DNA from: Acorus gramineus
Lineage: Eukaryota > Streptophyta > Magnoliopsida > Acorales > Acoraceae
Direction of reading: 5' to 3'
NCBI GenBank assembly: GCA_030737835.1
Contig: JAUJYN010000070.1
Location: 228,586-292,585, forward strand
DNA: 64,000 bases
The position numbers were made by a program, and so were the translations under genes. Position 1 is the stretch's first letter. Every line of letters starts with the position of its first letter. The notes beneath the pieces were generated by a model. The model had not been told where the DNA came from. It ran no database searches and worked only from the letters and a program-made list of their open reading frames with translations. This document shows positions 5,868 through 41,490 of the stretch, one piece after another.

Positions 5868-5907
5868 GATTTCGATCACGCGCGTCCCCTTACCTGACGC
5901 GCCAAGC

Positions 5908-6891: not shown

Positions 6892-6899
6892 TATAAAAG
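6892..6899 (+). promoter_or_regulatory. TATA box of the antisense gene (first copy)
   Basis: TATAAAAG in the context CACGTTATAAAAGGAG, about 86 bases upstream of the ATG at 6985. The same motif at the same spacing precedes the other two copies of this gene (8987 and 47555). It is on the + strand, opposite to gag and pol. Confidence 0.6.
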
Positions 6900-6984
6900 G
6901 AGAGAAGCTGGCCGAACTATTGCTCGATTCGACCCTTCCTAAACTCTCTTCTTCTCGTGCTTCTGACTTTCCCGTTCGTCTACC

Positions 6985-8249: not shown

Positions 8250-8268
8250 CAGATGAAAGAACAATGTG

Positions 8269-8274
8269 AATAAA
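8269..8274 (+). terminator. Possible polyadenylation signal of the antisense gene
   Basis: AATAAA, about 20 bases after the stop of the second antisense part (8249). The copy at 48938-48943 is intact; the second gene in copy A has AATAGA at the matching place (about 10035). Confidence 0.45.
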
Positions 8275-8986
8275 AGGAAGTTTATTTTTGAACTAGTACC
8301 TTGCTTTGGGGATGATTTTGAGGGGGATTGGGGTCCGAGCGTCTGTAGCTCAGACCACCTAGACGGCAGGCTCCGGCTCTGCCCCCAGGCTTGAGCCAGT
8401 TCGCGACACAGCTCCTGAGTTGGGTTTGTGCCTTTAGCGGTGGAGTTTTCGAGTCGTATACTTGGCTTGAACTGTGAGTACGGCGTGGTCTCATGAGGCT
8501 CGTCCCTACCCTCTGGCGTCCACCTTGGAGGGAATTTTGTTAGTCCCTAGCTTGAACCGACTGACGGTGTCGCCCTACGGGAAGTCATGGGTCGGAATCT
8601 TGGCTTGAAGGAGCTGGTGGAAAGAAATACCCTCTAGAGCGACACGTGGGGGACGGTACTGATTGCCAAGGACCAATGTCTGTGTCGATCTTCGTACATT
8701 CCTTAATCATGGCGGAATGTAGGGTTCCGAGGGGCTGACGTTGACTGAGATGTTCGTATTGTGATGCGAGGGTTCGCGAGGGAGTTAAGGCGCGCCTCGC
8801 CACGTCGGCTGTCCGCTCATATTGCGAGGCAAAGATTGCTGAGGGGACTGACGCCCGTCTTTTTATCTAGCCATCGTTTGGGGGGCCCACCATCTCGTTT
8901 TAATTTGTTTTAATGCTCGGGCGGCATTAGTGGGCGCGTGGATAGACGAGGGGGCGCTCGAAGATCGAGAAGGTCGCTGTTCACGT

Positions 8987-8994
8987 TATAAAAG
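8987..8994 (+). promoter_or_regulatory. TATA box of the antisense gene (second copy)
   Basis: TATAAAAG about 94 bases before the ATG at 9088, in the same context as 6892-6899. Confidence 0.5.
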
Positions 8995-9087
8995 GAGGAA
9001 AGGAGAAGCTGGCCGAACTATTGCTCGATTCGACCCTTCCTAAACTCTCTCTTCTTCTCGTGCTTCTGACTTTCCCGTTCGTCTACC

Positions 9088-9984
9088 ATGGCCGCCCTTT
9101 CGAGAGGTATCTTCGAGCGGAGGGTTCGATACGCCCCCGGAGTTGAGGACAGAGAGGGGCTCCGTCCGGGGGAGGTGTATTTCTCCCACCACCATCTCTC
9201 GGTCATCCTTCTTCCCCTTCATCCTCTCATTCCTACCTTCCTCACCTGTTTTGGTCTCGCGCCGCTCCAGGTGCATCTGAACGTCTTCCGATCCTGCACA
9301 CGGCGCTCTACCTCAACGAGACGAGTGGGTAAGGCCATGGGATCGCCAAGGTCATGTATTGCTATCGTTTCGCAGTGTGTCCGTACGAGAGGCGCTGCTT
9401 TTATTTTTTTGCCAACGGGCGACGTCGCCTCCTATTCGTTCTCCCGGACGTTGACCGGAGGTGGGAGGAGGAGGTGGTCGCCCTTAGTGGGGCGTGGTAG
9501 TGCCTGATTCGTGGGGCGCCCCCCATGTCAAAGAGGTTCGGGACCCTCCATAAGTGCTCACATTGAGTCCCCCTTCTTTTTGTTGTTTTCTCCTTTTCGG
9601 GTGCCTCACGTGCATGCTACTATGCAATGCAGGACGTGTTGACCTAGGGAGGGAGTTGTCCAGTTCTCGAGCCCGTTCTCGAGCCCGTTTCATGGAGCAG
9701 TCGAGCGTGATGAGTATCGCCGCTCAGCCGAATACTGGCAGTCAGGGGAGTTGGTGCGAGAGGCATCTGAGGGTGATCTCGAGGACGAGGTCGACGCTGG
9801 TTCGAGGGTAACCTGCGCCAGGAGCTTACGCAATGGTTGGGACTCCGCCAATCTACCAGAGGGCCATCCACGGCTACACCACCCAGACTCTGTTGATGCG
9901 GCGGAGGGTTTTGGTCCGAGGAAGTACCCGGAGCTCCCATCCCGATGCTGCTACCGTTCGAGTGGTGCTCCGCGATGGTGGTAG
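9088..9984 (+). pseudogene. Antisense ORF of the Tat element, second internally deleted copy
   Basis: Begins MAALSRGIFERRVRY and matches the gene at 6985 for about 70 residues before a frameshift near 9285. The acidic middle part is deleted: the sequence jumps from CATGGAGCAG to TCGAGCGTGATGAG at about 9697. The tail (EASEGDLEDEVDAG) is retained to a stop at 9984. Its AATAAA signal has become AATAGA. It is a duplicated and decayed copy. Confidence 0.6.
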
Positions 9985-10205
9985 CTTGTGTCCCCTTTTT
10001 TCCTTCTTTTTGTAACAGATGTAAGAACAATGTGAATAGAAGGAAGTTTATTTTTGAACTAGTACCTTGCTTTGGGGATGATTTTGAGGGGGATTGGGGT
10101 TTGAGCGTCTATAGCTCAGACCACCTAGACGGCAGGCTCCGGCTCTGCCCCCAGGCTTGAGCCAGTTCGCGACACAACTCCTGAGTTGGGTCTGTGCCTC
10201 TAGCG

Positions 10206-11370
10206 GTGGAGTTTTCGAGTCGCATCATTGGCTTGAACCGTGAGTACGGCGTGGTCTCATGAGGCTCGTCCCTTCCCTCCGGCGTCCCCCTTGGAGGGAA
10301 TTTTGTTAGTCCCTGGCTTGAACCGACTGATGGTGTCGCCCTACGGGAAGTCATGGGTCGGGTTCTTGGCTTGAATCGGCTGGCGGCGTCACCTTGTGAA
10401 ACACTTTCCCTTCCTCTGGCTTGAACCGACAAGCGGCGTCACCCTTGGAGGGAATTTTGTTCGTCCCTGGCTTGAATCGACTGACGTCGTCGCCCTGTGG
10501 GAAGTCATTGGTCGGGTCCTTGGCTTGAACCGGCTGGCGGCGTCACCCTGTGGAACCCTTCCCCTTCCTCCGGCTTGAACCGACTGGCGACGTCATCCTT
10601 GGAGCGAATTTTGTTCGTCCCTGGCTTGAACCAACTGACGGCTTCGCCCTGTGGAAGTCAGGGGTCAGGTCCTTGGCTTGAACCGGCTGGCGGTGTCACC
10701 CTGTGGAATTCTTCCCCTTCCTCCGGCTTGAACCGACTAGCAGCGTCACCCTTGGAGGGAATTTTATTTATCCCTCGCTTGAACCGACTAACGGCGTCGC
10801 CCTATGGGAAGTCATCAGTCGGGTCCTTGGCTTGAACCGGCTAGCGGCATCACCCTGGGAGGGAGTTTTTGGTCTGTATCCGACCGCGTGCAAGGGAGCG
10901 AATGGGTGTCCCGTTCCCATCCTAACCCGCAGCGTACGCGCGGCTAGACCCGGTCTGACGTGGTTTCTCCGCGACCGGCAATATGGGGGTAGGTGGCCAA
11001 CATCACTGGCCCTACCCGTGGTTGTACGTGCTCGGAGGGCCAGCATCACTGGCCCTACTTGTGGTTGTACGTGCTCGGGTAGAGAATTTTGTTTGTCCTT
11101 CGCTTGAACCGACTAACGGCGTCGCCCTGTGGGAAGTCATGGGTCGGGTACTTGGCTTGAACCGGCTAGCGGCGTCACCATGGGAGGGAGTTTTTGGTCT
11201 GTATCCGATCGCGTGCATGGGGGCAAATGGGTATCCCGTTCCCATCCTAACCCGCAGCGAACGCGCGGCTAGACTCGATCTGATGTGGTTTCTCCGCGGC
11301 CGACAGTACGGGGGTAAATGGCTAGCATCACTCGCCCTACCCGTGGTTGTACGTGCTCGGGGGATGGCCA
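10206..11370. repeat. GC-rich tandem repeats in the retrotransposon 3' region, copy A
   Basis: A motif GGCTTGAACCGACTGGCGGC recurs about every 50 bp with varied linkers (GTCACCCTTGGAGGG, GTCGCCCTGTGGGAAG and similar), giving a higher-order repeat near 150 bp. Two longer blocks of about 320 bp (around 10770-11085 and 11095-11370) repeat a segment containing GGTCTGTATCCGA. All frames are open by composition only and I see no gene. Variable tandem repeats between pol and the 3' LTR are common in Tat elements. Confidence 0.75.
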
Positions 11371-11491
11371 TGTATTGAATAGGGATATATATTCACAAAC
11401 ATCCATCCATATTTAAAACATGCAGGTGTCAGCTAAAAGAATGAATTAATCATAAATAGTTTCTAAACATTATTCAACAAAGCCACCCGGC

Positions 11492-12665
11492 CTACACATA
11501 ATACTTTCTCAAGTTCATAGCATTCCATGTCGTCTACATGGGTACCTTTCGGGGCCCGACCGTGGAAAGCTTGTATGCCCCCTTGTCGTAAGCCTCCACC
11601 ACCTCATATGGACCTTCCCAGGTGGCCCCAAGTTTTCCAGCGTTAGGCTCGCGAATGTTGTCAGTGACGCGTTGGAGCACCCACTCGCCGGGAGTGAATG
11701 ACTGGGGGCGCACCTTTCGGTTGAAGTGGAGGGCCTATTGGCGTTGGTAGGCAGCCAGGCGGATGAGACCAGTTTCCCTTCGTTCCTCGAGTAGAGCGAG
11801 GTTCCGAGTAAGGGCTGCATCGTTCTGCTCGTAGTCAGCGAGCGATGATCGCAGAGTTGGACGGCCGAATTCAGTTGGAATGACTCCTTTCGAGCCGTAG
11901 GCGAGGGCGTAAGGGGTCTCCCCGATGAGCTTTCTTCGGGCGGTGCGATATGCCCAGAGGACTCCCGAAAGCACCTCGAGCCATCGCCCTTTCCGATCTT
12001 CAAGCCTCTTTCTTAAGCTGTGGAAGATCGTGCGATTGGTGACTTTAGCTTGCCCGTTCCCTTGTGGCTATGCACGGGAGGAGAACCGTTGTTGGATGCC
12101 ATATTTTTCGCAAAACTCACAAACGGGAGCGTTTGTGAACTGCGCCCCATTGTCTGTGATGACGGTTATAGGCACCCCAAACCTGATGTGATTTCACAAG
12201 AAAGTTTTGACGTCGGAGTGCTTCACGGTCTTGTAAGCCTCTGCCTCAACCCACTTAGAGAAATAGTCGGTCGCTAGGAGCACGTACCTTTTTTCCCCTG
12301 GCCGCGACCGGGAACGGCCCAGCAATGTCCATTCCCCATTGCGCGAAGGGCCACGGGACAGTGAGGGCGTGCAGATTCTCGGCCGGGAGGTGTATGAGAG
12401 GGGCGTGCAACTGGCATTGCTTGCACCGTCGTGCGAAGTCGAGGGCGTCTTTGCAGAGATTGGGCCTGTAATACCCTTGAGTCGAGATGCGGTGAGCCAA
12501 TGACCTTCCGGATGATTGATCGCCGCACGACCCTTCGTGGACTTCTTCCATCAGGAGCTTAGCTTCGTTCCTGGCGAGACACCTTAAGAATGGTCCGTCC
12601 TCGTTGCGCCGGTACAATACCCCGTCGATGATCGAGTACCTCACGGAGCGACGTCTCAATTTCAA
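11492..12665 (-). pseudogene. Integrase of the Tat-type retrotransposon, copy A
   Basis: Minus-strand remains of Ty3/gypsy integrase. The N-terminal zinc-binding region has EVHEGSCG and ARRCKQCQLHAP. The core begins with the first catalytic Asp in QWGMDIAGPFP and the second in ITDNGAQF. The third catalytic residue is lost: the motif reads NGQAKVTNRT where the family has Glu in place of Lys (GAG to AAG). In-frame stops occur near 12073 (before PQGNGQ) and near 12195. The C-terminal part (GEWVLQRVTDN, GPYEVVEAYDKGAYKL) ends at NLRKYYV with the stop at 11492. The protein would insert cDNA into the genome, but this copy cannot be active. Confidence 0.85.
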
Positions 12666-13265
12666 GGCTTCGGTGTGGGCACGGTCCCGTCCCTTATGAA
12701 GGCTTCAATTTCGTCCATCCAGCACGGTGACTCTCTTCGGATTGCTCCGACTGAGGGGGCGGGATCCACGGATGGGTGTTCGAACATTTCAGAAGGAACC
12801 CAATACCCGCTCCCGTCGATGGCTGCCGTGGCGAGAGAGTCAGTCGCGGCATTGTCGCTTCTCGGGAGGTAGTGGATCTCAAAGCCGAAGAATTCCTTGG
12901 ACAGCTCGGCTGCCAAGCATTGGTATTGCTCCATTCTTTGGTCCTTGGCAGCGTAGGTGCCGTCGACCTGTAAAACCACCAATTGTGAATCGCAATATAC
13001 GCGCAAGTACCTGACATGGAGTGCCTTGGCGAGCTGGAGACCAACTAGCAACGCCTCAAACTCTGCGACGTTATTGGACGCGGCGAAGCGGAGTCAGAGC
13101 GATTGCTCGAGCGTAGTCCCGTCGGGGGTGTGGATGACGACCCCGGCCCCGTGCCCCCTGTGGCCGGATGCACCATCCACGTGTAAAGCTCACCAGTCCA
13201 GGAGGTGCGGAGGATCCTTGAGCTCAGCCACTGATTGCTCTATCTCGTCCGCGGGGCGGGTCAAA
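12666..13265 (-). pseudogene. Second (archaeal-type) RNase H domain of the Tat-type pol
   Basis: In reading order: HVDGASGHRGHGAGVV, a premature TGA after TTLEQSL near 13093, NNVAEFEALLVGLQLA, RYLRVYCDSQLVVLQV, and IHYLPRSDNAATDSLA. These match the conserved blocks of an RNase H fold: the first Asp in VDGAS, Glu in EFEA, Asp in YCDSQ and Asp in RSDNAA. A second RNase H placed between the standard RNase H and integrase is the mark of the Tat lineage of Ty3/gypsy elements. It follows directly after the first RNase H remnant at the edge of the tandem array. It is a pseudogene because of the stop. Confidence 0.75.
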
Positions 13266-16200
13266 TTCGAGAAGGAAGTCCGCCACCACTTGGCCTTTCA
13301 CCGAGACTTGGGGCTTGTAATCAATATCGAACGGTGACAGCTCGATGGCCCATTTCGCCGTGCGCCCGTACAAGTCGAGCTTATGGAGGAACACACGGAT
13401 AGGATGCGAGGTGAGGACCACGATGCGGTGCGCTTCAAAGTAGTGAAAAAGCCTTCGTTTGGTTACTACGAGGGCGAGAGTGAGCTTTTCGATTGAGGAG
13501 TAGCGACTCTTAGCATCCGTCATTGACTTGCTGGTATAGAATACGAGACGTCGCAGGCCCTGGTCTTTGTGGAAGAGTGCTGCGCTCACGGAGGTGGTGG
13601 AAACCGCGAGGTACGGATAGACCTCCTAACCTTCGACCGGGACCGAGAGGATCGGCGGCCTAATGAGATGCTCCTTGAGCTCGCAGAATGCAGCTTGCTG
13701 CGCCTCGCCCCACTTCATCCCCTTGACAACTTGAAAGAATGGGCGGCAGCAATCCGAAAGTCGAGAAATGAATCGTGCGAGCGTGGCGACCCGTCCCGTA
13801 ATCACCTGTATGCTAAATTCCTGGACTTTTATCGGGCTAGCCTCTATCCCTTGTCGGTGGACAATGTGACCCAAAAGATGTCCAGAGGAGACCCCAAAGG
13901 AACATTTTGTTGGGTTCAACTTCATACACATCGTCCGAAGAGTTTCGAAAGCTTCCGACAAATGGACTAGATGGTCGTGGTGACAATGACTCTTTATGAC
14001 CGTATCGTCGATGTAAACCTCAACGGTACGTCCGATGAGATCGCGGAAAACTTTGTTCACCAACCGCTGGAAAGTGGCCCCGACGTTTTTCAACCTGAAC
14101 GACATTACCGTGTAACAATAGAGCCTGCGCTCGGTGATAAACGCCGTCTTCTCCTAGTCTTTTGGGTGCAGTGGGATTTGGTTATATCCCGAATAGGCGT
14201 CAAAAAAGATAATCACCGGTACCCGGCCGTCGCATCGACCAGTTGATCGATTTTGGGAAGGGGGTAACTGTCTTTGGGGCATGCTTTGTTCAGGTTGGTG
14301 AAGTCGATACAAACTCTCCAATTACCGTTCTTCGAGAAGGAAGTCCGCCACCACTTGGCCTTTCACCGAGACTTGGGGCTTGTAATCAATATCGAACGGT
14401 GATAGTTCGATAGCCAATTTCGCTTTGCGCCCGTACAAGTCCGGCTTATGGAGAAACACACGGATAGGGTGCGAGGTGAGGACCACGATGCGATGCGCTT
14501 CAAAGTAGTGAAAAAGCCTTCGTTTGGTTACTACGAGGGCGAGAGTGAGCTTTTCGATTGAGGAGCAGCGACTCTTAGCATCCGTCATTGACTTGCTGGT
14601 ATAGAATACGAGACGTCGCAGGCCCTGGTCTTTGTGGAAGAGTGCTGCGCTCACGGAGGTGGTGGAAACCGCGAGGTACGGATAGAGCTCCTAACCTTCG
14701 ACCGGGACCGAGAGGATCGGCGGCCTAATGAGATGCTCCTTGAGCTCGCAGAATGCAGCTTGCTGCGCCTCGCCCCACTTCATCCCCTTGACAACTTGAA
14801 AGAATGGGCGGCAGCAATCCGAAAGTCGAGAAATGAATCGTGCGAGCGTGGCGACCCGTCCCGTAATCACCTGTATGCTGATTTTGGAGAAGGGGACGCG
14901 CTAAATTCCTGGACTTTTATCGGGCTAGCCCTATCCCTTGTCGGTGGACAATGTGACCCAAAAGATGTCCAGAGGAGACCCCAAAGGAACATTTTGTTGG
15001 GTTCAACTTCATACACATCGTCCGAAGAGTTTCGAAAGCTTCCGACAAATGGACTAGATGGTCGTGGTGACAATGACTCTTTATGACCGTATCGTCGATG
15101 TAAACCTCAACGGTACGTCCGATGAGATCGCGGAAAACTTTGTTCACCAACCGCTGGAAAGTGGCCCCGACGTTTTTCAACCTGAACGACATTACCGTGT
15201 AACAATAGAGCCTGCGCTCGGTGATAAACGCCGTCTTCTCCTAGTCTTTTGGGTGCAGTGGGATTTGGTTATATCCCGAATAGGCGTCAAAAAAGATAAT
15301 CACCGGTACCCGGCCGTCGCATCGACCAGTTGATCGATTTTGGGAAGGGGGTAACTGTCTTTGGGGCATGCTTTGTTCAGGTTGGTGAAGTCGATACAAA
15401 CTCTCCAATTACCGTTCTTCGAGAAGGAAGTCCGCCACCACTTGGCCTTTCACCGAGACTTGGGGCTTGTAATCAATATCGAACGGTGACAGCTCGATGG
15501 CCCATTTCGCCGTGCGCCCGTACAAGTCGAGCTTATGGAGGAACACACGGATAGGATGCGAGGTGAGGACCACGATGCGGTGCGCTTCAAAGTAGTGAAA
15601 AAGCCTTCGTTTGGTTACTACGAGGGCGAGAGTGAGCTTTTCGATTGAGGAGCAGCGACTCTTAGCATCCGTCATTGACTTGCTGGTATAGAATACGAGA
15701 CGTCGCAGGCCCTGGTCTTTGTGGAAGAGTGCTGCGCTCACGGAGGTGGTGGAAACCGCGAGGTACGGATAGACCTCCTAACCTTCGACCGGGACCGAGA
15801 GGATCGGCGGCCTAATGAGATGCTCCTTGAGCTCGCAGAATGCAGCTTGCTGCGCCTCGCCCCACTTCATCCCCTTGACAACTTGAAAGAATGGGCGGCA
15901 GCAATCCGAAAGTCGAGAAATGAATCGTGCGAGCGTGGCGACCCGTCCCGTAATCACCTGTATGCTGATTTTGGAGAAGGGGACGCGCTAAATTCCTGGA
16001 CTTTTATCGGGCTAGCCCCTATCCCTTGTCGGTGGACAATGTGACCCAAAAGATGTCCAGAGGAGACCCCAAAGGAACATTTTGTTGGGTTCAACTTCAT
16101 ACACATCGTCCGAAGAGTTTCGAAAGCTTCCGACAAATGGACTAGATGGTCGTGGTGACAATGACTCTTTATGACCGTATCGTCGATGTAAACCTCAACG

Positions 16201-19200
16201 GTACGTCCGATGAGATCGCGGAAAACTTTGTTCACCAACCGCTGGAAAGTGGCCCCGACGTTTTTCAACCTGAACGACATTACCGTGTAACAATAGAGCC
16301 TGCGCTCGGTGATAAACGCCGTCTTCTCCTAGTCTTTTGGGTGGAGTGGGATTTGGTTATATCCCGAATAGGCGTCAAAAAAGATAATCACCGGTACCCG
16401 GCCGTCGCATCGACCAGTTGATCGATTTTGGGAAGGGGGTAACTGTCTTTGGGGCATGCTTTGTTCAGGTTGGTGAAGTCGATACAAACTCTCCAATTAC
16501 CGTTCTTCGAGAAGGAAGTCCGCCACCACTTGGCCTTTCACCGAGACTTGGGGCTTGTAATCAATATCGAACGGTGACAGCTCGATGGCCCATTTCGCCG
16601 TGCGCCCGTACAAGTCGAGCTTATGGAGGAACACACGGATAGGATGCGAGGTGAGGACCACGATGCGGTGCGCTTCAAAGTAGTGAAAAAGCCTTCGTTT
16701 GGTTACTACGAGGGCGAGAGTGAGCTTTTCGATTGAGGAGCAGCGACTCTTAGCATCCGTCATTGACTTGCTGGTATAGAATACGAGACGTCGCAGGCCC
16801 TGGTCTTTGTGGAAGAGTGCTGCGCTCACGGAGGTGGTGGAAACCGCGAGGTACGGATAGACCTCCTAACCTTCGACCGGGACCGAGAGGATCGGCGGCC
16901 TAATGAGATGCTCCTTGAGCTCGCAGAATGCAGCTTGCTGCGCCTCGCCCCACTTCATCCCCTTGCCTGCCTTGACAACTTGAAAGAATGGGCGGCAGCA
17001 ATCCGAAAGTCGAGAAATGAATCGTGCGAGCGTGGCGACCCGTCCCGTAATCACCTGTATGCTGATTTTGGAGAAGGGGACGCGCTAAATTCCTGGACTT
17101 TTATCGGGCTAGCCCCTATCCCTTGTCGGTGGACAATGTGACCCAAAAGATGTCCAGAGGAGACCCCAAAGGAACATTTTGTTGGGTTCAACTTCATACA
17201 CATCGTCCGAAGAGTTTCGAAAGCTTCCGACAAATGGACTAGATGGTCGTGGTGACAATGACTCTTTATGACCGTATCGTCGATGTAAACCTCAACGGTA
17301 CGTCCGATGAGATCGCGGAAAACTTTGTTCACCAACCGCTGGAAAGTGGCCCCACGTTTTTCAACCTGAACGACATTACCGTGTAACAATAGAGCCTGCG
17401 CTCGGTGATAAACGCCGTCTTCTCCTAGTCTTTTGGGTGGAGTGGGATTTGGTTATATCCCGAATAGGCGTCAAAAAAGATAATCACCGGTACCCGGCCG
17501 TCGCATCGACCAGTTGATCGATTTTGGGAAGGGGGTAACTGTCTTTGGGGCATGCTTTGTTCAGGTTGGTGAAGTCGATACAAACTCTCCAATTACCGTT
17601 CTTCGAGAAGGAAGTCCGCCACCACTTGGCCTTTCACCGAGACTTGGGGCTTGTAATCAATATCGAACGGTGACAGCTCGATGGCCCATTTCGCCGTGCG
17701 CCCGTACAAGTCGAGCTTATGGAGGAACACACGGATAGGATGCGAGGTGAGGACCACGATGCGGTGCGCTTCAAAGTAGTGAAAAAGCCTTCGTTTGGTT
17801 ACTACGAGGGCGAGAGTGAGCTTTTCGATTGAGGAGCAGCGACTCTTAGCATCCGTCATTGACTTGCTGGTATAGAATACGAGACGTCGCAGGCCCTGGT
17901 CTTTGTGGAAGAGTGCTGCGCTCACGGAGGTGGTGGAAACCGCGAGGTACGGATAGACCTCCTAACCTTCGACCGGGACCGAGAGGATCGGCGGCCTAAT
18001 GAGATGCTCCTTGAGCTCGCAGAATGCAGCTTGCTGCGCCTCGCCCCACTTCATCCCCTTGACAACTTGAAAGAATGGGCGGCAGCAATCCGAAAGTCGA
18101 GAAATGAATCGTGCGAGCGTGGCGACCCGTCCCGTAATCACCTGTATGCTGATTTTGGAGAAGGGGACGCGCTAAATTCCTGGACTTTTATCGGGCTAGC
18201 CCTATCCCTTGTCGGTGGACAATGTGACCCAAAAGATGTCCAGAGGAGACCCCAAAGGAACATTTTGTTGGGTTCAACTTCATACACATCGTCCGAAGAG
18301 TTTCGAAAGCTTCCGACAAATGGACTAGATGGTCGTGGTGACAATGACTCTTTATGACCGTATCGTCGATGTAAACCTCAACGGTACGTCCGATGAGATC
18401 GCGGAAAACTTTGTTCACCAACCGCTGGAAAGTGGCCCCGACGTTTTTCAACCTGAACGACATTACCGTGTAACAATAGAGCCTGCGCTCGGTGATAAAC
18501 GCCGTCTTCTCCTAGTCTTTTGGGTGGAGTGGGATTTGGTTATATCCCGAATAGGCGTCAAAAAAGATAATCACCGGTACCCGGCCGTCGCATCGACCAG
18601 TTGATCGATTTTGGGAAGGGGGTAACTGTCTTTGGGGCATGCTTTGTTCAGGTTGGTGAAGTCGATACAAACTCTCCAATTACCGTTCTTCGAGAAGGAA
18701 GTCCGCCACCACTTGGCCTTTCACCGAGACTTGGGGCTTGTAATCAATATCGAACGGTGACAGCTCGATGGCCCATTTCGCCGTGCGCCCGTACAAGTCG
18801 AGCTTATGGAGGAACACACGGATAGGATGCGAGGTGAGGACCACGATGCGGTGCGCTTCAAAGTAGTGAAAAAGCCTTCGTTTGGTTACTACGAGGGCGA
18901 GAGTGAGCTTTTCGATTGAGGAGCAGCGACTCTTAGCATCCGTCATTGACTTGCTGGTATAGAATACGAGACGTCGCAGGCCCTGGTCTTTGTGGAAGAG
19001 TGCTGCGCTCACGGAGGTGGTGGAAACCGCGAGGTACGGATAGACCTCCTAACCTTCGACCGGGACCGAGAGGATCGGCGGCCTAATGAGATGCTCCTTG
19101 AGCTCGCAGAATGCAGCTTGCTGCGCCTCGCCCCACTTCATCCCCTTGCCTGCCTTGACAACTTGAAAGAATGGGCGGCAGCAATCCGAAAGTCGAGAAA

Positions 19201-22200
19201 TGAATCGTGCGAGCGTGGCGACCCGTCCCGTAATCACCTGTATGCTGATTTTGGAGAAGGGGACGCGCTAAATTCCTGGACTTTTATCGGGCTAGCCCTA
19301 TCCCTTGTCGGTGGACAATGTGACCCAAAAGATGTCCAGAGGAGACCCCAAAGGAACATTTTGTTGGGTTCAACTTCATACACATCGTCCGAAGAGTTTC
19401 GAAAGCTTCCGACAAATGGACTAGATGGTCGTGGTGACAATGACTCTTTATGACCGTATCGTCGATGTAAACCTCAACGGTACGTCCGATGAGATCGCGG
19501 AAAACTTTGTTCACCAACCGCTGGAAAGTGGCCCCGACGTTTTTCAACCTGAACGACATTACCGTGTAACAATAGAGCCTGCGCTCGGTGATAAACGCCG
19601 TCTTCTCCTAGTCTTTTGGGTGGAGTGGGATTTGGTTATATCCCGAATAGGCGTCAAAAAAGATAATCACCGGTACCCGGCCGTCGCATCGACCAGTTGA
19701 TCGATTTTGGGAAGGGGGTAACTGTCTTTGGGGCATGCTTTGTTCAGGTTGGTGAAGTCGATACAAACTCTCCAATTACCGTTCTTCGAGAAGGAAGTCC
19801 GCCACCACTTGGCCTTTCACCGAGACTTGGGGCTTGTAATCAATATCGAACGGTGACAGCTCGATGGCCCATTTCGCCGTGCGCCCGTACAAGTCGAGCT
19901 TATGGAGGAACACACGGATAGGATGCGAGGTGAGGACCACGATGCGGTGCGCTTCAAAGTAGTGAAAAAGCCTTCGTTTGGTTACTACGAGGGCGAGAGT
20001 GAGCTTTTCGATTGAGGAGCAGCGACTCTTAGCATCCGTCATTGACTTGCTGGTATAGAATACGAGACGTCGCAGGCCCTGGTCTTTGTGGAAGAGTGCT
20101 GCGCTCACGGAGGTGGTGGAAACCGCGAGGTACGGATAGACCTCCTAACCTTCGACCGGGACCGAGAGGATCGGCGGCCTAATGAGATGCTCCTTGAGCT
20201 CGCAGAATGCAGCTTGCTGCGCCTCGCCCCACTTCATCCCCTTGCCTGCCTTGACAACTTGAAAGAATGGGCGGCAGCAATCCGAAAGTCGAGAAATGAA
20301 TCGTGCGAGCGTGGCGACCCGTCCCGTAATCACCTGTATGCTGATTTTGGAGAAGGGGACGCGCTAAATTCCTGGACTTTTATCGGGCTAGCCCCTATCC
20401 CTTGTCGGTGGACAATGTGACCCAAAAGATGTCCAGAGGAGACCCCAAAGGAACATTTTGTTGGGTTCAACTTCATACACATCGTCCGAAGAGTTTCGAA
20501 AGCTTCCGACAAATGGACTAGATGGTCGTGGTGACAATGACTCTTTATGACCGTATCGTCGATGTAAACCTCAACGGTACGTCCGATGAGATCGCGGAAA
20601 ACTTTGTTCACCAACCGCTGGAAAGTGGCCCCGACGTTTTTCAACCTGAACGACATTACCGTGTAACAATAGAGCCTGCGCTCGGTGATAAACGCCGTCT
20701 TCTCCTAGTCTTTTGGGTGGAGTGGGATTTGGTTATATCCCGAATAGGCGTCAAAAAAGATAATCACCGGTACCCGGCCGTCGCATCGACCAGTTGATCG
20801 ATTTTGGGAAGGGGGTAACTGTCTTTGGGGCATGCTTTGTTCAGGTTGGTGAAGTCGATACAAACTCTCCAATTACCGTTCTTCGAGAAGGAAGTCCGCC
20901 ACCACTTGGCCTTTCACCGAGACTTGGGGCTTGTAATCAATATCGAACGGTGACAGCTCGATGGCCCATTTCGCCGTGCGCCCGTACAAGTCGAGCTTAT
21001 GGAGGAACACACGGATAGGATGCGAGGTGAGGACCACGATGCGGTGCGCTTCAAAGTAGTGAAAAAGCCTTCGTTTGGTTACTACGAGGGCGAGAGTGAG
21101 CTTTTCGATTGAGGAGCAGCGACTCTTAGCATCCGTCATTGACTTGCTGGTATAGAATACGAGACGTCGCAGGCCCTGGTCTTTGTGGAAGAGTGCTGCG
21201 CTCACGGAGGTGGTGGAAACCGCGAGGTACGGATAGACCTCCTAACCTTCGACCGGGACCGAGAGGATCGGCGGCCTAATGAGATGCTCCTTGAGCTCGC
21301 AGAATGCAGCTTGCTGCGCCTCGCCCCACTTCATCCCCTTGCCTGCCTTGACAACTTGAAAGAATGGGCGGCAGCAATCCGAAAGTCGAGAAATGAATCG
21401 TGCGAGCGTGGCGACCCGTCCCGTAATCACCTGTATGCTGATTTTGGAGAAGGGGACGCGCTAAATTCCTGGACTTTTATCGGGCTAGCCCCTATCCCTT
21501 GTCGGTGGACAATGTGACCCAAAAGATGTCCAGAGGAGACCCCAAAGGAACATTTTGTTGGGTTCAACTTCATACACATCGTCCGAAGAGTTTCGAAAGC
21601 TTCCGACAAATGGACTAGATGGTCGTGGTGACAATGACTCTTTATGACCGTATCGTCGATGTAAACCTCAACGGTACGTCCGATGAGATCGCGGAAAACT
21701 TTGTTCACCAACCGCTGGAAAGTGGCCCCGACGTTTTTCAACCTGAACGACATTACCGTGTAACAATAGAGCCTGCGCTCGGTGATAAACGCCGTCTTCT
21801 CCTAGTCTTTTGGGTGGAGTGGGATTTGGTTATATCCCGAATAGGCGTCAAAAAAGATAATCACCGGTACCCGGCCGTCGCATCGACCAGTTGATCGATT
21901 TTGGGAAGGGGGTAACTGTCTTTGGGGCATGCTTTGTTCAGGTTGGTGAAGTCGATACAAACTCTCCAATTACCGTTCTTCGAGAAGGAAGTCCGCCACC
22001 ACTTGGCCTTTCACCGAGACTTGGGGCTTGTAATCAATATCGAACGGTGACAGCTCGATGGCCCATTTCGCCGTGCGCCCGTACAAGTCGAGCTTATGGA
22101 GGAACACACGGATAGGATGCGAGGTGAGGACCACGATGCGGTGCGCTTCAAAGTAGTGAAAAAGCCTTCGTTTGGTTACTACGAGGGCGAGAGTGAGCTT

Positions 22201-23074
22201 TTCGATTGAGGAGCAGCGACTCTTAGCATCCGTCATTGACTTGCTGGTATAGAATACGAGACGTCGCAGGCCCTGGTCTTTGTGGAAGAGTGCTGCGCTC
22301 ACGGAGGTGGTGGAAACCGCGAGGTACGGATAGACCTCCTAACCTTCGACCGGGACCGAGAGGATCGGCGGCCTAATGAGATGCTCCTTGAGCTCGCAGA
22401 ATGCAGCTTGCTGCGCCTCGCCCCACTTCATCCCCTTGCCTGCCTTGACAACTTGAAAGAATGGGCGGCAGCAATCCGAAAGTCGAGAAATGAATCGTGC
22501 GAGCGTGGCGACCCGTCCCGTAATCACCTGTATGCTGATTTTGGAGAAGGGGACGCGCTAAATTCCTGGACTTTTATCGGGCTAGCCCCTATCCCTTGTC
22601 GGTGGACAATGTGACCCAAAAGATGTCCAGAGGAGACCCCAAAGGAACATTTTGTTGGGTTCAACTTCATACACATCGTCCGAAGAGTTTCGAAAGCTTC
22701 CGACAAATGGACTAGATGGTCGTGGTGACAATGACTCTTTATGACCGTATCGTCGATGTAAACCTCAACGGTACGTCCGATGAGATCGCGGAAAACTTTG
22801 TTCACCAACCGCTGGAAAGTGGCCCCGACGTTTTTCAACCTGAACGACATTACCGTGTAACAATAGAGCCTGCGCTCGGTGATAAACGCCGTCTTCTCCT
22901 AGTCTTTTGGTGGAGTGGGATTTGGTTATATCCCGAATAGGCGTCAAAAAAGATAATCACCGGTACCCGGCCGTCGCATCGACCAGTTGATCGATTTTGG
23001 GAAGGGGGTAACTGTCTTTGGGGCATGCTTTGTTCAGGTTGGTGAAGTCGATACAAACTCTCCAATTACCGTTC
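13266..23074 (-). repeat. Nine-unit tandem array of the RT-RNase H segment (array A)
   Basis: Nine head-to-tail copies of one internal pol segment. Units start at the TTCGAGAAGG junction at 13266, 14331, 15418, 16506, 17602, 18689, 19785, 20882 and 21979, giving lengths of 1065, 1087, 1088, 1096, 1087, 1096, 1097, 1097 and 1096 bp. Each unit holds RT from the block NGNWRVCIDF through DAYSGYNQ, FQRLVNKVF, the catalytic YIDD and GHIVHRQG, then the RNase H connection and domain to VADFLLE. At each boundary, RNase H runs into the RT start again, out of frame, giving LLEER and a stop. Length differences come from a 9-bp deletion (units 1, 2, 3 and 5), a 1-bp C-run change and a 24-bp deletion in unit 1. 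Most units are nearly identical. The right end joins the normal RT N-terminal region and the left end joins the second RNase H, so the array sits inside one element. Confidence 0.95.
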
Positions 23075-23330
23075 TTCTTCTTGACGAGGATAACATTCGA
23101 GATCCAGTCGGGATATTGAACCTCTTGGATAAATCTCGCTTCAAGGAGGCGATCAATTTCGTCCGATATGATCCTGTTGCGTTTGGAGACAAAGCGTCGC
23201 TGCTTCTGCCTGACGGGGGTTGAACCTGGACAGATATTGAGCTCGTGGACAGCGATCGCAGGGTCAATCCCGGGCATGTCACTGTGTGTCGAGGTGAACA
23301 CAACCTGGTTGGCCCGCAACATGGCTAATA
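21979..23330 (-). pseudogene. Reverse transcriptase N-terminal region with the last array unit
   Basis: This is the only place in array A where RT has its natural upstream sequence. Reading down from about 23330: HSDMPGIDPAIAVHEL, EIDRLLEARFIQEV, SNVILVKKKNGNWRV, then NKACPKDSYPLPKID and FFDAYSGYNQIPLH. The last has the first catalytic Asp, and the YIDD box follows within the same unit. A 1-bp deletion at about 22909 (TTTTGGTGGAG, where other units have TTTTGGGTGGAG) breaks the frame in this unit. RT copies the element RNA into DNA; this copy is not functional. Confidence 0.8.
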
Positions 23331-23482
23331 AGGCATCTTGGTCCTCGAGGGGGAGGAGACTTCCTATCTGGACGGTCCTCTCGATGGGTCTGCGTCCAAT
23401 GGGATAGATTCGACCGGCTCAAGAGTGGGGGATTCGGTTTCTTCTTGCGCGAGAGCTTGAGCCCACTTAGGTGGTCGGTCGT

Positions 23483-24118
23483 CTAATTGCTATAATGGTG
23501 GGGGAGGATCGTCTTGAGGCAACAGGGCGGCTGCACTTGAGGCGATCGCGCAGCAACGCCTCGCGGTGACCTGATTGCCACGGATGTCAATCGTCGAGCG
23601 ACCGTTACTGGTGAGGCAACACATAACCTGGTGTAGAGTTGAGAGTACGCCTTCCATGCGATGAATCTAGTCCCATCCCATGATGGCATTATAAGCTGAG
23701 GGGGAATCCACCACAATGAAGTCGATGTCCAAAGTACGATCGGCTGCGGTGACTGGCAGAGTCACCACTCCAACCGGAGTGATTTGATTCCCGTCGAATC
23801 CGACTAGTGGCGGACTCGAGCGCTGAATGATCTCCGCGTCTAACCCCATCCGGGTGAAAGCGCTGAGAAAAAGAATGTTGGCGCTGCTTCCACCATTGAT
23901 CATGATCCTTTGAGCCTGACAGTTGCATATAAAGAGGGTAACGACCAATGGGTCCGAGTGGGGAAGGAGTACCTCTTCGAGATCGTGTGGATCGAATCTG
24001 ATGGCGTGAACCCCGATAGTTTCCGGTTCTCGGCTCGGCCTCCAGTTTGATCTCCTGGGCTTTTCCTCCCTCGGTTCCATCTTTGGCGGGCTAAGTCATC
24101 CATGTATGGTTGACACAA
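23483..24118 (-). pseudogene. Retropepsin-type protease of the Tat-type element
   Basis: Open over 23667-24080: HSDPLVVTLFICNC, RIMINGGSSANILFLSAF, FTRMGLDAEI, LVGFDGNQITPVGVV, and YNAIMGWD followed by a stop at 23667. A downstream frame continues to about 23483. The catalytic motif in this family is normally (V/I)DGGSS(A)D. Here the first Asp is Asn (AAT) and the residue before ILF is also Asn, so the protease cannot cut Gag-Pol. It lies between gag and RT as expected. Confidence 0.8.
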
Positions 24119-25734
24119 CCCGAGGCGGTGGGTTCATTGGTTTTGCGCCGGCGACGCGTCCATTCGTGCCCCCAATGTTGGGGGATGCCTGTCGAGCCAC
24201 ATAGTACGCGAGGCGGCCACCACGTATTAAAGCTTCGACTTGTGAGCGAAGACTACGGAACTAGTCTGTGGTGTGACAACCTCGTTATGGAATTCGGATC
24301 TCCGATTTTGGTCGCGATTCTCTACGGGTGACCTGATTGGGACTGGGGCCGGAAGAACCCCTTGTCGCAGTTCTCCTTCCACACATGCCCAGTAGGGACG
24401 GTAAGGGGGGTTGATTTGACATTGGACTACCTGGGAGTCCGCCCTGCGGACGTCGCGGCATCGCCTTTCTTCGTAGGGCCGGAAGGTGGCTTCTTCGAGG
24501 TCGTTCCCCCCTTAGGCGTTGGGTGACAGAGATAGGGGTCGTCACCTTTCAGTTGGCAAGCGCGGCATCCTCCTCCAACCGGAGGTAGCCGTCGACCTGT
24601 AACAATATGTCAGCCATGTCGACAGGAGGCTTTCGGACGAGGAATTCGTAGAAGTTCCCAGTCGCCACCAGTCCTGAGCGGAAGGCCATCGTGGCAGTCC
24701 TTGGGTCACAGTCGTCGACCTGAGTCATCTCGGTACTGAAACGCATGAGGTAATCCTTCAATCGTTCACCTTCGGCTTGTCTCATCCTGAAGAGGTTGGC
24801 GACATCTTTTTTCGGCTTGCAATAGCAGATGTAGTGGCCGATAAAGAGTTCGCATAGGTTCCATAAGCTGGAGACAGAGCCCGGGGTGAGCTTCCGGAAC
24901 CAAGCGAGGGCTTGCCCCCCAAGACTTTGGAGAAAGACCTTACAGAGCAGGGCGTCATCCCCGGCTTCGAGGGACATGCGCTATTGAAACAAGAACAGAT
25001 GCTCTGTCGGGTCCGTCTTTCCCTCGTAAAGTTTAAATTTCGGGGGAGTGAATTTCTCCGAACGAGGGGTGCGGAGGATGTCCGCTAATAACGGGGAAAC
25101 AAGAACAGATGCTCTGTCGGGTCCGTCTTTCCCTCGTAAAGTTTAAATTTCAGGGGAGTGAATTTCTTTGGACAAAGGGTGTGGAGGATGTCCGCTGATA
25201 ACGGGGACAAGTGGATCAATTCTGCCGTCTCGAGCGTGTGGTCAGTGGCGGTGCATGGTCTCATGGTGCGGAACCGCTGGTCCATTACCTTCATTAGATC
25301 TTCGCGAAGTCCTGGGTTGTCTTGGCGTGGCCTCTTGGAATTGACGGCCACGTTCGACGAACCGGCGGGTTCTTCGACATGAAGGGGATTTGCCTGAGGA
25401 TCTACGCAATGCAGGTGTTTGCCCATGTGTGGGGCGTTGGGTTGCGCAAGTGGGACGGCCTCCGCAGGCTGTCGGTCGATTGCCCCGTTTTCTTGTTCCA
25501 GCGGGTTGTCCAGCAGGTTGCGAAGGCGCTCATTCTCGCGTCGCATCTCGTCCATTGAACGACGGAGTCCTTCTGCCTCGGCCTTGAGACCGGCTTCGTC
25601 CATGCGGCGTTGCGGATCAACTCCGTCGAAGCGCGGGTTTTCCCTCGGCAGACTTCCGGGATCAGACGAGGCGCTACGTAGTACTGATCGGATGACTGGG
25701 GTGGAAGAGACGGAAGGTTTTTCTTGGGGGGCAT
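24119..25734 (-). pseudogene. Gag of the large Tat-type retrotransposon
   Basis: Minus-strand Gag remnant next to its own LTR. The N-terminal part (25813-25085) is the best preserved: EAEGLRRSMDEMRRENERL suggests a coiled coil, followed by KRPRQDNPGLREDLMK and KFKLYEGKTDPTEHLF. After a 110-bp duplication and a frameshift, the capsid core continues at 24977-24549 (LQSLGGQALAWFRKL, LFIGHYICY, EGERLKDYLMRFS, MADILLQVDGYLRLEEDAA). The C-terminal region down to about 24119 is frameshifted and no clean zinc knuckle is readable. The ATG at 25734 (MPPKKNLPS) is out of frame with the rest; the main frame stays open upstream of it, so the start is uncertain. Confidence 0.75.
24986..25205. repeat. 110-bp tandem duplication inside gag
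   Basis: GAAACAAGAACAGATGCTCT occurs at 24986 and again at 25096, and the following 100 bases repeat with several substitutions. The truncated gag copies at 5221 and 45900 have one unit only, so the duplication is specific to the large element. It shifts the gag frame. Confidence 0.8.
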
Positions 25735-25773
25735 GTTTCGATCGCGCACATCCCCTTACCTGGCGCGCCAAGC

Positions 25774-26333
25774 TGGAGGTACAGAAATTGACTATCTGGA
25801 TTCGGGTCATCAAGATCTGCCGACTCCGCTCCTCCCAATCTCCTCCTTGGTCCTGCCGGCTTCCTTCCTTCTAAGGTAAGGTGGTAGTTTGTTGTGACTG
25901 AACCTCGAGATCTTTCTCTAGGCTGCCTACGTACCCCTCCTGACTTTTGGCTCTCAATTTGTCTATGGGGATCAAGTCATACGTAGTTCCTATTTAAAGT
26001 GTTCTCCCCAACCCCTAGGATCATCTGAAGATCATATCTACATGAGTCCTGGATTTTTGGGATCGATCTCATCCTATTGAGATTTACTTCATCTGTGACC
26101 TAGATTCGCTCAGATTCTAGAGTTGACTTATTCCTGAGACCTATCTATTTGGCCCTAGTGGATAAGCGTCCCATGATTTAGGATTTGTTGGATCTGCATT
26201 CTCTAACCCAGTCAACTGACAGGCGGCGGATTCAGCGATGAGGGGTGATCCGGGTCTTGGGTTTCCACCTAAGCGGGTCGTGAGCCGTCGCCGCGTGGGG
26301 CTCTACGGATGGACCTCATTTTTGGGCCCTACA
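25774..26333 (-). repeat. 5' LTR of the large Tat-type retrotransposon
   Basis: 560 bp. On the minus strand it reads TGTAGGGCCC...GTACCTCCA, with proper TG...CA ends. The leader GCTTGGCGCGCCAGGTAAGG follows directly on the gag side; it may hold the primer binding site, but I cannot assign the tRNA. The outer end at 26333 abuts TAAGTGATTC, DNA that also occurs at 1751 and 42414. The TATA-like motif is altered to TTTAAATAG. It differs from the left LTR by a number of substitutions and small indels, so insertion was not recent. Confidence 0.8.
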
Positions 26334-26520
26334 TAAGTGATTCAAGGAATTAAAGTTTCCAATTGCCTAATGGTTATCTGTTATTAAAGTTTAACAATGT
26401 AATAAGAAACTTATCATTTATTCTCATTTGTGACACCTAGGAGAGCTATTTACTCAAAAAGGCGATGGGTTCCACATGTATTCTCATTAATGAATTAATA
26501 TTAACACGATGAGTACTCTT
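26334..26520. other. Right flank of the retrotransposon, duplicated AT-rich DNA
   Basis: 26334-26460 matches 1751-1885 and the copy near 42414. The remainder leads into the 518-bp repeats. No gene seen. Confidence 0.6.
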
Positions 26521-28739
26521 AACATTTAGATTAACATTTCCATATTTTTTATGACTTGTGAGTACTCTTACATTAATGAATTAATATCAACACGATGAAA
26601 TCACATATCATCCAAAAGCAAAATCACATCCCCTTCCCCATAAAAAAAAATAAAACATGATACTATCCGATGAAGGCATACATACATACCTAAGCTATAA
26701 TCATCTGCATTAGCCATGTGATGGGTGCGCGTGATTGTAACTCCGCAATGATCCCTAATGAAAAATGATAGTTAGATAACATCAGTGTAACAGACAAACA
26801 AACACATGATAGTGTTTCAAGAAAGAAGATTCAAATCAAACTGAAATGCTGAAATGAAAAAAAATCAGAAATTGATCAACATTGACACATTACATTCTTG
26901 TATTAAAATGTCTGGAAAAAAAAAGATCAACGCAAAAGCAGAGGTTCACCTTCTCAACATCATTCAATCCTTCGTGCAGCTTAAAAATCACGCTCCTTAA
27001 TTGAACACACGAATCACTTCATCGAATTGTCACCTCTTAACATTTAGATTAACATTTCCATATTTTTTATGACTTGTGAGTACTCTTACATTAATGAATT
27101 AATATCAACACGATGAAATCACATATCATCCAAAAGCAAAATCACATCCCCTTCCCCATAAAAAAAAATAAAACATGATACTATCCGATGAAGGCATACA
27201 TACATACCTAAGCTATAATCATCTGCATTAGCCATGTGATGGGTGCGCGTGATTGTAACTCCGCAATGATCCCTAATGAAAAATGATAGTTAGATAACAT
27301 CAGTGTAACAGACAAACAAACACATGATAGTGTTTCAAGAAAGAAGATTCAAATCAAACTGAAATGCTGAAATGAAAAAAAATCAGAAATTGATCAACAT
27401 TGACACATTACATTCTTGTATTAAAATGTCTGGAAAAAAAAAGATCAACGCAAAAGCAGAGGTTCACCTTCTCAACATCATTCAATCCTTCGTGCAGCTT
27501 AAAAATCACGCTCCTTAATTGAACACACGAATCACTTCATCGAATTGTCACCTCTTAACATTTAGATTAACATTTCCATATTTTTTATGACTTGTGAGTA
27601 CTCTTACATTAATGAATTAATATCAACACGATGAAATCACATATCATCCAAAAGCAAAATCACATCCCCTTCCCCATAAAAAAAAATAAAACATGATACT
27701 ATCCGATGAAGGCATACATACATACCTAAGCTATAATCATCTGCATTAGCCATGTGATGGGTGCGCGTGATTGTAACTCCGCAATGATCCCTAATGAAAA
27801 ATGATAGTTAGATAACATCAGTGTAACAGACAAACAAACACATGATAGTGTTTCAAGAAAGAAGATTCAAATCAAATTGAAATGCTGAAATGAAAAAAAA
27901 TCAGAAATTGATCAACATTGACACCCATAGTTGTCTGGGCGGCTAAGCGAGCCTAGGCGGTGGCCAACCGCCTAGCCGCCTAGGCGTGCTTAGGCGCGCC
28001 TAGGCGGCGCTTAATTAAGATTTTATAATTGAAATTGGTAATTATATTAAAATTATTTATCTACCTATCCATTTTTTAATTTTTTTATGAATATTACTTA
28101 AAATGAAGAATGCTATTTATAAATAAATAACACATGGATGTAATTTATTGGTGCATGTCCATTTTAAAAAAATTAATATAATCTAACCCTAGTGGCATTA
28201 AAGAAGAAGAAAAGGGGAAAGAGTTTAGAGAAGAATGAGATAAGAGTTCAAAATTTTTGAGGAGAGATAGGAGGGAGAGACAAAAAATCAATGGAGACTC
28301 ACTTGGGATCGGGAGAATTCGCTACACTGTTGACCGGCAGAGTAGGTGATGTTTCAATCTTTCGATTGTGTTTTTTTTTCTTTTATTTTTTTAGGTTAGG
28401 CGAGGGATTGGGCGAGCTAGGCGTGATTAAGGCGGGCTAGGCGTGATTTAGGGGGGTAGGCGGGCCCAGGCGCCCGCCTAATTAACATGCTATTAGGCGG
28501 GCGATCGCCTAGGTCCATCTGGACCGCCTAGCCGCCTAGGCGGCGCCTAGGCGACGCCTAGGCGTCGCCCAGACAACTATGATTGACACATTACATTCTT
28601 GTATTAAAATGTCTGGAAAAAAAAAGATCAACGCAAAAGCAGAGGTTCACCTTCTCAACATCATTCAATCCTTCGTGCAGCTTAAAAATCACGCTCCTTA
28701 ATTGAACACACGAATCACTTCATCGAATTGTCACCTCTG
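26521..28739. repeat. Three 518-bp tandem repeats, the third split by a MITE
   Basis: Units begin at AACATTTAGATTAACATTTC at 26521, 27039 and 27557, an exact 518-bp period with almost no differences, so the triplication is young. The third unit carries a 657-bp insertion plus an 8-bp target duplication. On the minus strand each unit contains a possible 65-nt exon (26754-26690 in unit 1, acceptor TTTTTCATTAG, donor GTATGTATG). It includes the frame ATGGCTAATGCAGATGATTA. An upstream block ends in GGATTGAATGATGTTGAGAAG. Degenerate relatives of part of the unit lie around 30840-31030 and 31150-31370, upstream of the V-ATPase G exon. Confidence 0.85.
27925..28581. mobile_element. hAT-type MITE, 657 bp
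   Basis: Terminal inverted repeats start CATAGTTGTCTGGGCGG and end CGCCCAGACAACTATG. The insertion is flanked by an 8-bp direct repeat, ATTGACAC (27917-27924 and 28582-28589). The uninterrupted 518-bp units 1 and 2 carry a single ATTGACAC at this point, which proves the insertion site. An 8-bp duplication and CA-starting ends indicate the hAT superfamily. The subterminal regions are packed with the GC-rich palindrome-like motif GCCTAGGCG; the centre is AT-rich. There is no coding region, so it depends on a transposase elsewhere. Confidence 0.85.
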
Positions 28740-28994
28740 AGTCGTCATCGCCAGATCGTTATCGGGTTGAAAATATCTTCATAGATTATTTGAGTTACTG
28801 TAGATGAGTGCCAACTGATAAATTTGTAACGAATTTTAAATACCTTGTAGGATCATCAATACAAATTAATGAGTAAAGAAGTAGTATCCAAAATATCTAA
28901 TTTAAGCGCTTGGGGTAAAAAAACAAAGACATGGAGACATGTTCACATTTCTTTATTTACTACTGACATATGAAAAGGGAATGTTAATCCTTAC

Positions 28995-41466: not shown

Positions 41467-41490
41467 ATGTGCATTAAACACATGTATTAG

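What the first reader, a model, noticed from the sequence alone, without database searches (positions are those of the whole stretch)
13266..23074. A protein-coding RT-RNase H segment turned into a nine-unit tandem array
Nine head-to-tail copies of exactly the same pol segment (RT 'NGNWRV' to RNase H 'VADFLLE') sit inside one Tat-type retrotransposon, with normal pol on both sides. Satellite-like arrays from retrotransposons usually come from LTRs or untranslated repeats, not from the catalytic core. The units keep YIDD and long open frames on the minus strand. This may be a young satellite in formation.
Basis: seen in the sequence. Interest (0 to 1): 0.85.

Follow-up and report, generated by a model that had tools for sequence, protein, structure and literature searches.

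The report
Young tandem array from retrotransposon pol
A dead plant retrotransposon's reverse-transcriptase/RNase H segment has been copied head-to-tail into very young, nearly identical arrays, so the early steps of a satellite repeat's birth (single copy, pair, long array) can be read in one genome.

Summary
In detail: nine head-to-tail ~1.09-kb RT–RNase H units lie at 13267–23077, joined at one identical breakpoint. A second array (50697–60156, resuming at 63856) runs off the contig end. Both lie in tandem copies, the second incomplete, of a ~35-kb segment. A third array on C1 (12 letter-identical units) runs into a stretch of N. C5 carries the segment with single copies and one dimer that has the same junction. 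Genome-wide, the junction occurs 31 times: 17 on C108, 13 on C1, 1 on C5. All 15 complete window units have a frameshift and a stop in the same intervals, so a dead pol was amplified. Best explanation: one tandem duplication at 3-bp microhomology gave a dimer, which unequal exchange expanded and homogenised; copying between loci was at DNA level. Copy number beside the contig end and N stretch is uncertain; no reads could be inspected. A review names pol among sources of satellites, so this is a new member of a known kind, valuable for its recency and monomer–dimer–array series. It is satellite-like, not yet abundant.

The parts
13267..23077 (-). Array 1: nine head-to-tail RT-RNase H units (u1 13273-14332, u2 14338-15419, u3 15425-16507, u4 16513-17603, u5 17609-18690, u6 18696-19786, u7 19792-20883, u8 20889-21980, u9 21986-23076); coding sense on the minus strand
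50697..60156 (-). Array 2, left part: one partial unit, six clean complete units, plus rearranged units (deletion with a 42-bp duplication at 54741-54826; 499-bp duplication at 58994-59991)
63856..64000 (-). Array 2, continuation after the hAT insertion; runs off the end of contig C108
60157..63855 (+). hAT transposon (DUF659 + Dimer_Tnp_hAT, ORF 61002-62900) inserted in a unit of array 2; target duplicate CCGGTACC (8 bp; the BLAST overlap is 9)
304..35234 (.). Copy 1 of the ~35-kb duplicon (AT-rich flanks + element with array 1)
35235..64000 (.). Copy 2 of the duplicon, incomplete because the contig ends; contains a 5.8-kb insertion at about 35845-41662
22960..23418 (-). N-terminal RT pol sequence across the native right border of array 1 (no Pfam hit; assigned by position and the NGNWRV motif)
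24552..24980 (-). gag (Retrotrans_gag)
12665..13093 (-). Second RNase H-type domain (RVT_3) beside the native left border; Tat-type order RT-RH-aRH-INT
12258..12704 (-). Integrase zinc-binding domain (Integrase_H2C2, 24.0 bits, cut-off 25.5)
10280..11360 (.). Tandem repeats (period 154 and 325) between the integrase part and the left end of the element, where Tat/Retand elements usually have them
6967..7434 (+). Antisense open stretch with weak Transposase_28 match (17.7 bits, cut-off 26.2)
4710..6478 (-). gag/5' region of a neighbouring truncated element, matching 24467-26331

Best explanation
This is an incipient satellite made at the DNA level from a dead Tat/Retand-like retrotransposon. 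One tandem duplication of the RT-RNase H segment, joined at a 3-bp overlap (TTC), made a dimer (junction shown; mechanism inferred). Unequal crossing-over and gene conversion between units then expanded it to 9 and to more than 9 units and homogenised the inner units (pattern shown; process inferred). The locus is itself a tandemly duplicated ~35-kb segment, whose own junction also fits a 3-bp overlap (TAA). Copies or parts of that segment lie on C5, C1 and C32. C5 shows the single-copy and dimer states; that these are earlier states rather than later contractions is inferred. No coding function is preserved, and the array probably has no function beyond its own amplification (inferred).
For: One identical junction joins the units in both window arrays. 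Genome-wide (27-mer, up to 2 mismatches) it occurs 31 times: 17 on C108, 13 on C1, 1 on C5, against 0 for the reversed control. Overlap of the two native borders is exactly TTC. The duplicon junction fits TAA, read by eye from the C108-left, C1-right and C108 junction sequences. Edge units keep older variants and inner units are homogeneous: against u4, u3 and u5-u9 have 0 substitutions, u1 has 3, u2 has 13. u2 carries a ~90-bp block of 11 variants also seen in the left unit of the C5 dimer. A 9-bp deletion is shared by u1, u2, u3, u5 and A2_u2. Array 2 and C1 share a change at column 654 and a C at column 851, and A2_u6 is letter-identical to the C1 unit. Non-transposon flanks are duplicated with the element: window 28800-30200 at 99-100% on C1, C32 and twice on C5; window 2000-4500 at 99-100% in the second C108 copy and twice on C5. 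All 15 complete window units have a frameshift and a stop in the same intervals.
Against: No reads were available, so copy number is unverified where arrays meet a contig end (C108) or N (C1); the tool also writes N for withheld stretches. The twelve letter-identical C1 units could be an assembler's repetition. The shared flanks are not uniformly alike: window 31500-35400 matches C5 and C1 at only 90-96%. Pol beside the arrays differs far more than the units do (C5 dimer element 7.7-9.7%; C1 edge 11.4% then 4.2%), so in-place exchange alone is not enough and ectopic exchange must be added. The left dimer unit lacks the stop, and the right one lacks the first frameshift but has two stops there, so the C5 dimer is not simply the unchanged founder. 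With two 3-bp overlaps, microhomology is suggestive only.
Confidence: 0.72

Rival explanations
1. The arrays are wholly or partly assembly artefacts: a short tandem was unrolled or misjoined into nine or more units.
For: C108 ends inside array 2. The C1 array abuts a stretch of N and its 12 complete units are letter-identical. Array 2 holds odd partial units.
Against: Array 1 is bounded by different pol sequence on both sides and several of its units carry indels or substitutions of their own. A hAT with a duplicated target interrupts array 2. The same junction is found in a dimer well inside C5, a 30.7-Mb contig.
Confidence: 0.12
2. The tandem arose during reverse transcription (strand transfer between co-packaged RNAs) and spread by retrotransposition, as proposed for 3'UTR repeats of Tat elements.
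For: This origin is hypothesised for Tat/Ogre 3'UTR repeats (PMC7004042, passages). The junction occurs on more than one large contig.
Against: Array and dimer loci share non-retrotransposon flanking DNA, 99-100% in two stretches and 90-96% in a third, which an RNA intermediate would not carry. All 21 units examined have at least one frameshift or stop. The window element is truncated, and no LTR pair with target-site duplication was established.
Confidence: 0.1
3. Extrachromosomal circles of the unit were amplified by rolling-circle replication and reinserted, giving runs of identical units.
For: Twelve letter-identical C1 units, 13 junctions at exactly 1097-bp spacing, and a unit letter-identical to one in array 2.
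Against: Array 1 shows graded edge variants and interleaved indels as expected from unequal exchange. The arrays keep their place in pol next to native borders rather than lying at new sites. The C1 identity may be an assembly effect.
Confidence: 0.12
4. The array is kept because the RT-RNase H units or their transcripts do something (protein supply, silencing RNA source, chromatin role).
For: YIDD is intact in all 15 complete window units; this is also expected from youth alone.
Against: All 15 have a frameshift and a stop in the same intervals. No transcription or chromatin data were available.
Confidence: 0.03

Closest known systems
Tat/Ogre 3'UTR-derived satellites of Lathyrus sativus (Vondrak et al., PMC7004042; passages read)
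   Same: Tandem arrays inside Tat-lineage Ty3/gypsy elements that expand in place into satellite-like arrays.
   Different: Those arrays start from short repeats downstream of gag-pol, in elements dispersed across the genome. Here the unit is a 1.09-kb piece of pol itself, and the junction was found on only three contigs.
CRM1TR/CRM4TR of maize (PMC3648361; passages)
   Same: Tandem repeats made from pieces of a Ty3/gypsy element; the authors discuss gene conversion and unequal exchange and report recombinant monomers.
   Different: Those are listed as derived from UTR and LTR regions (table row in PMC9659126) of centromeric elements; this one is pol, and its relation to the centromere is unknown.
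Coding-region-derived satellites: rye E3900 (gag), PROsat and HinfI (LINE ORF2) (PMC9659126; passages and parts of Table 1)
   Same: A coding part of a transposable element serves as source of the repeat unit.
   Different: None of the table rows that I saw names RT-RNase H of an LTR retrotransposon; I saw passages, not the whole table. The figure legend of that paper does list POL among possible sources.
Retand elements (PMC11963269; abstract and passages)
   Same: Long pol-3'LTR region with tandem repeats and antisense TRP28 ORFs; the host element here resembles this.
   Different: The arrays described there lie between pol and the 3'LTR, not in RT-RNase H.

Membership tests
Transposon-derived tandem array | Head-to-tail units identifiable as a piece of a transposable element | tested here: met
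Transposon-derived tandem array | Unit homogenisation (concerted evolution) | tested here: met
   u3 and u5-u9: 0 substitutions against u4; edge units more divergent; single copies on C2 and C3 only 86-91% like the array units
Satellite DNA proper | High abundance in long arrays | tested here: not met
   31 junctions in the whole assembly; a contig end and an N stretch lie at arrays, so the true number may be larger. Hence called satellite-like, not a satellite
Satellite DNA proper | Heterochromatic or centromeric location | not testable with these tools
   needs FISH or CENH3 ChIP
Tat/Retand LTR retrotransposon | Domain order RT-RNase H-second RNase H (aRH)-integrase | tested here: met
   RVT_1, RT_RNaseH and RVT_3 above cut-off; Integrase_H2C2 24.0 bits against a cut-off of 25.5. 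That RVT_3 here is the Tat aRH is inferred from position
Tat/Retand LTR retrotransposon | Tandem repeats between pol and 3'LTR | tested here: met
   154-bp repeats at 10280-10857 and longer ones to 11360; position of the 3'LTR itself not settled
Tat/Retand LTR retrotransposon | Antisense TRP28 ORF | tested here: inconclusive
   Transposase_28 E 0.0041, 17.7 bits, under the 26.2 cut-off; the longer antisense stretches 48051-48884 and 7542-8246 had no match
Tat/Retand LTR retrotransposon | RT phylogenetic placement, paired LTRs, primer-binding site and target-site duplication | tested here: inconclusive
   No RT tree against reference lineages was built. Of six primer-site words only GGCGCCA occurs (6696, 47359) and was not followed up; LTR borders stayed unsettled

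The most novel reading that the evidence does not exclude
The RT-RNase H unit behaves as a homogenising cassette that is exchanged between loci independently of its host element: the C1 unit is 99.8% like inner array-1 units and up to 100% like array-2 units, while the pol immediately beside the arrays differs by 4-11% between C108 copy 1 and C1. The C108 and C1 arrays may be two ends of one much larger unassembled array, a locus-specific satellite caught at birth with a dimer relative still present on C5.
Probability: 0.3. Interest if true: 0.65.

Novelty: new member of a known kind. Interest (0 to 1): 0.45.

Why it matters
How satellites begin is usually inferred from old, homogenised arrays. 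Here single-copy, dimer and array states of one segment coexist in one genome, with the founding breakpoint readable to the base. The two-step model (microhomology duplication, then unequal exchange) and its rate therefore become directly testable by comparing individuals. It also gives a clear case in which the source is a catalytic coding region rather than an LTR or UTR.

Tried and rejected
Rejected: that the units code for anything (frameshift and stop in 15 of 15); that the window holds one array; that C108 is a simple alternative haplotype of C1, because five spots of 0.3–0.7 kb beyond the C1 N stretch, out to 90 kb, have no match of 100 bases or more in C108:128586–292585 (C108:1–128585 was not read); that C108's left surroundings are those of C5, since 0 matches of 80 bases or more were found between C108:218586–228888 and the two 6-kb C5 end stretches. 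The right-hand C5 stretch has four 152–382-base matches at 71–86% to C108 further upstream, repeat-like. I first took the 35-kb tandem junction as unique to C108. One search showed C5 matches running across it and one search aligned two of them, so it is shared with C5. The 35-base pattern search had missed them because they differ by a 4-base indel. The first unit search missed the C1 array, which the junction pattern found; DNA counts there are lower bounds.

Led nowhere: primer-binding-site words; Pfam on the right-border RT fragment; passages of PMC6947457, PMC7290377 and PMC9904347, which gave no pol-derived array; placing C108's upstream sequence elsewhere in the genome (searches did not complete). 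The species was not identified. Age: with a recalled rate near 1e-8 per site per year, zero substitutions in u3–u9 or in the C1 units point to tens of thousands of years or less; this is a rough estimate that assumes the assembled letters are right.

Full report
What was checked. Pfam places RVT_1 and RT_RNaseH within units, RVT_3 and Integrase_H2C2 (just under cut-off) on the left and gag on the right, all read from the minus strand. With the 154-bp repeats at 10280–10857 and a weak antisense Transposase_28 match, the host element resembles the Retand/Tat lineage as described in PMC11963269 (abstract and passages). No RT tree was built, and LTR borders and primer-binding site remained unsettled.

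A second array begins at 50697, is interrupted by a hAT transposon at 60157–63855 with a duplicated target of 8 bp (9 by BLAST overlap), resumes at 63856 and runs off the contig: the window is the last 64 kb of C108, a 292,585-base contig. The arrays lie in two tandem copies of a ~35-kb segment, the second incomplete: 304–915 matches 35235–35844 and 995–8617 matches 41663–49286, with a 5.8-kb insertion in copy 2. Between about 2.0 and 5.0 kb the copies differ by 0.2–0.4% per 500 columns; over the whole 995–8617 alignment by 2.1%, with peaks to 11%.

The junction. All 8 internal junctions of array 1 read the same, as do 8 of 9 in array 2, one of them with a single mismatch; the ninth breaks off shortly after the join. 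Comparison with the native borders gives an overlap of exactly three bases, TTC. The junction 27-mer, with up to two mismatches, occurs 31 times in the 398.6-Mb assembly: 17 on C108 (8 in array 1, 9 in array 2), 13 on C1:8006545–8019735 and 1 on C5:20641479; the reversed control gives 0. The unit search had listed 68 matches but not the C1 array, so that count is a lower bound.

Other loci. On C5 (20.61–20.69 Mb) relatives of the element occur as single copies, as one dimer with the same junction and as another tandem pol duplication with other breakpoints. None of the four C5 loci examined (L020, L021, L002, L004) has the array junction at up to 3 mismatches. On C1, twelve complete units are letter-identical and a thirteenth is truncated. 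The array runs into N from 8019873; N is seen again up to 8029872, the 4 kb between the two reads not being looked at. The tool also writes N for withheld stretches, so this may be a gap or a withheld stretch. The C1 unit is letter-identical to A2_u6 and shares with all six complete array-2 units a change at alignment column 654 that none of the nine array-1 units has. C1:7995430–8006028 matches window 22980–27037 and 28582–35244 in reverse and stops at the duplicon's end. So C108 and C1 may be two sides of one unassembled array; this is inferred.

The segment beyond the arrays. Window 28800–30200 is found at 99–100% on C1, C32 and twice on C5 besides itself. Window 2000–4500 is found at 99–100% in the second C108 copy and twice on C5, and not at that level on C1 or C32. 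Window 31500–35400 is less alike: 95% in one C5 copy, 90% and 96% in two pieces of the other, 94% on C1. The duplicon junction at 35235 is continuous in both C5 stretches that I read, at about 97%. Read by eye, the native left end (C108) and native right end (C1) share TAA at that junction. The C32 copy is partial: 1001 of 1001 sampled bases match C1, but the last 1.2 kb of that contig match the window only in short 73–78% stretches. C5, C1 and C108 differ in the outer surroundings that I compared. The shared non-transposon DNA argues that the dimer was copied with the segment rather than by retrotransposition.

State of the units. All 15 complete window units have a frameshift between the RT N-terminal anchor and YIDD and a stop between the RT C-terminal and RNase H anchors; 14 of 15 have a further frameshift after YIDD. 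YIDD itself is present in all 15, in the 12 complete C1 units and in both dimer units; it is not read in the truncated C1 unit or in the single copies L004 and L007. The dimer's left unit has both frameshifts but lacks the stop; its right unit has the second frameshift and the stop but, in place of the first frameshift, two stops. The amplified segment was therefore already dead, and the open stretches reflect youth.

How it grew. Against u4, units u3 and u5–u9 show no substitution, u1 has 3 and u2 has 13. u2 carries a block of 11 variants (columns 66–156) seen also in the left unit of the C5 dimer, and a 9-bp deletion is shared by u1, u2, u3, u5 and A2_u2. Array 2 units differ from u4 by 1–6 substitutions. 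This is the pattern expected from unequal exchange with older edges. Against a simple story, the pol next to the arrays is much more divergent than the units: 7.7–9.7% to the C5 dimer element, and 11.4% then 4.2% between C108 copy 1 and C1. Ectopic exchange with other family members must have taken part, or the history is more complex. The tree of 21 units has only one starred fork, so finer order is not claimed.

Artefact. No reads could be seen. Array 1 has both native borders and distinguishable units and is the most trustworthy; array 2 and C1 touch a contig end and an N stretch, and the identity of the C1 units may be an assembly effect.

Known work. Tat/Ogre 3'UTR arrays that grow into satellites are documented (PMC7004042, passages), CRM-derived tandem repeats too (PMC3648361, passages). 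A 2025 review states that satellites can arise from gag or pol domains (PMC12628747, passages); a 2022 review lists gag and LINE ORF2 cases (PMC9659126, passages and table parts). Seven searches of the open library (shown: 12 of 12, 20 of 83, 15 of 16, 15 of 36, 12 of 121, 12 of 43 and 5 of 5 papers) listed no paper whose title or shown abstract start describes an RT–RNase H-derived array in a Tat element; most subscription papers are not held. The find is a new member of a known kind, valuable for its recency and its surviving dimer.

Noticed in passing
60157-63855: hAT element with an unbroken 632-aa ORF (DUF659, hAT dimerisation) inserted in a unit of array 2, target duplicate CCGGTACC.
   Followed up: partly
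35845-41662: About 5.8-kb insertion present in duplicon copy 2 only, with inverted ends (36023-36481 against 41014-41440) and an ORF with a weak GRF zinc-finger match; probably a DNA transposon.
   Followed up: no
26516-27924: 518-bp tandem duplication at 99.9%, just right of the element; C1 lacks window 27038-28581.
   Followed up: no
54741-54826 and 58994-59991: Exact 42-bp duplication and 97% 499-bp duplication inside array 2, secondary rearrangements of units.
   Followed up: partly
L020 (C5:20613900-20618100): A second tandem duplication of pol (~1.27 kb) with other breakpoints and an 8-base overlap at the join: tandem duplication recurs in this cluster.
   Followed up: partly
L005-L019 (C5:20636936-20651683): 2.4-kb head-to-tail duplication of a pol-gag stretch at 97.8%, next to the dimer-bearing pol.
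   Followed up: no
L035/L036 (C32:13872800-13876118): Partial copy of the duplicon near the end of a 13.9-Mb contig, 1001 of 1001 sampled bases identical to C1.
   Followed up: partly
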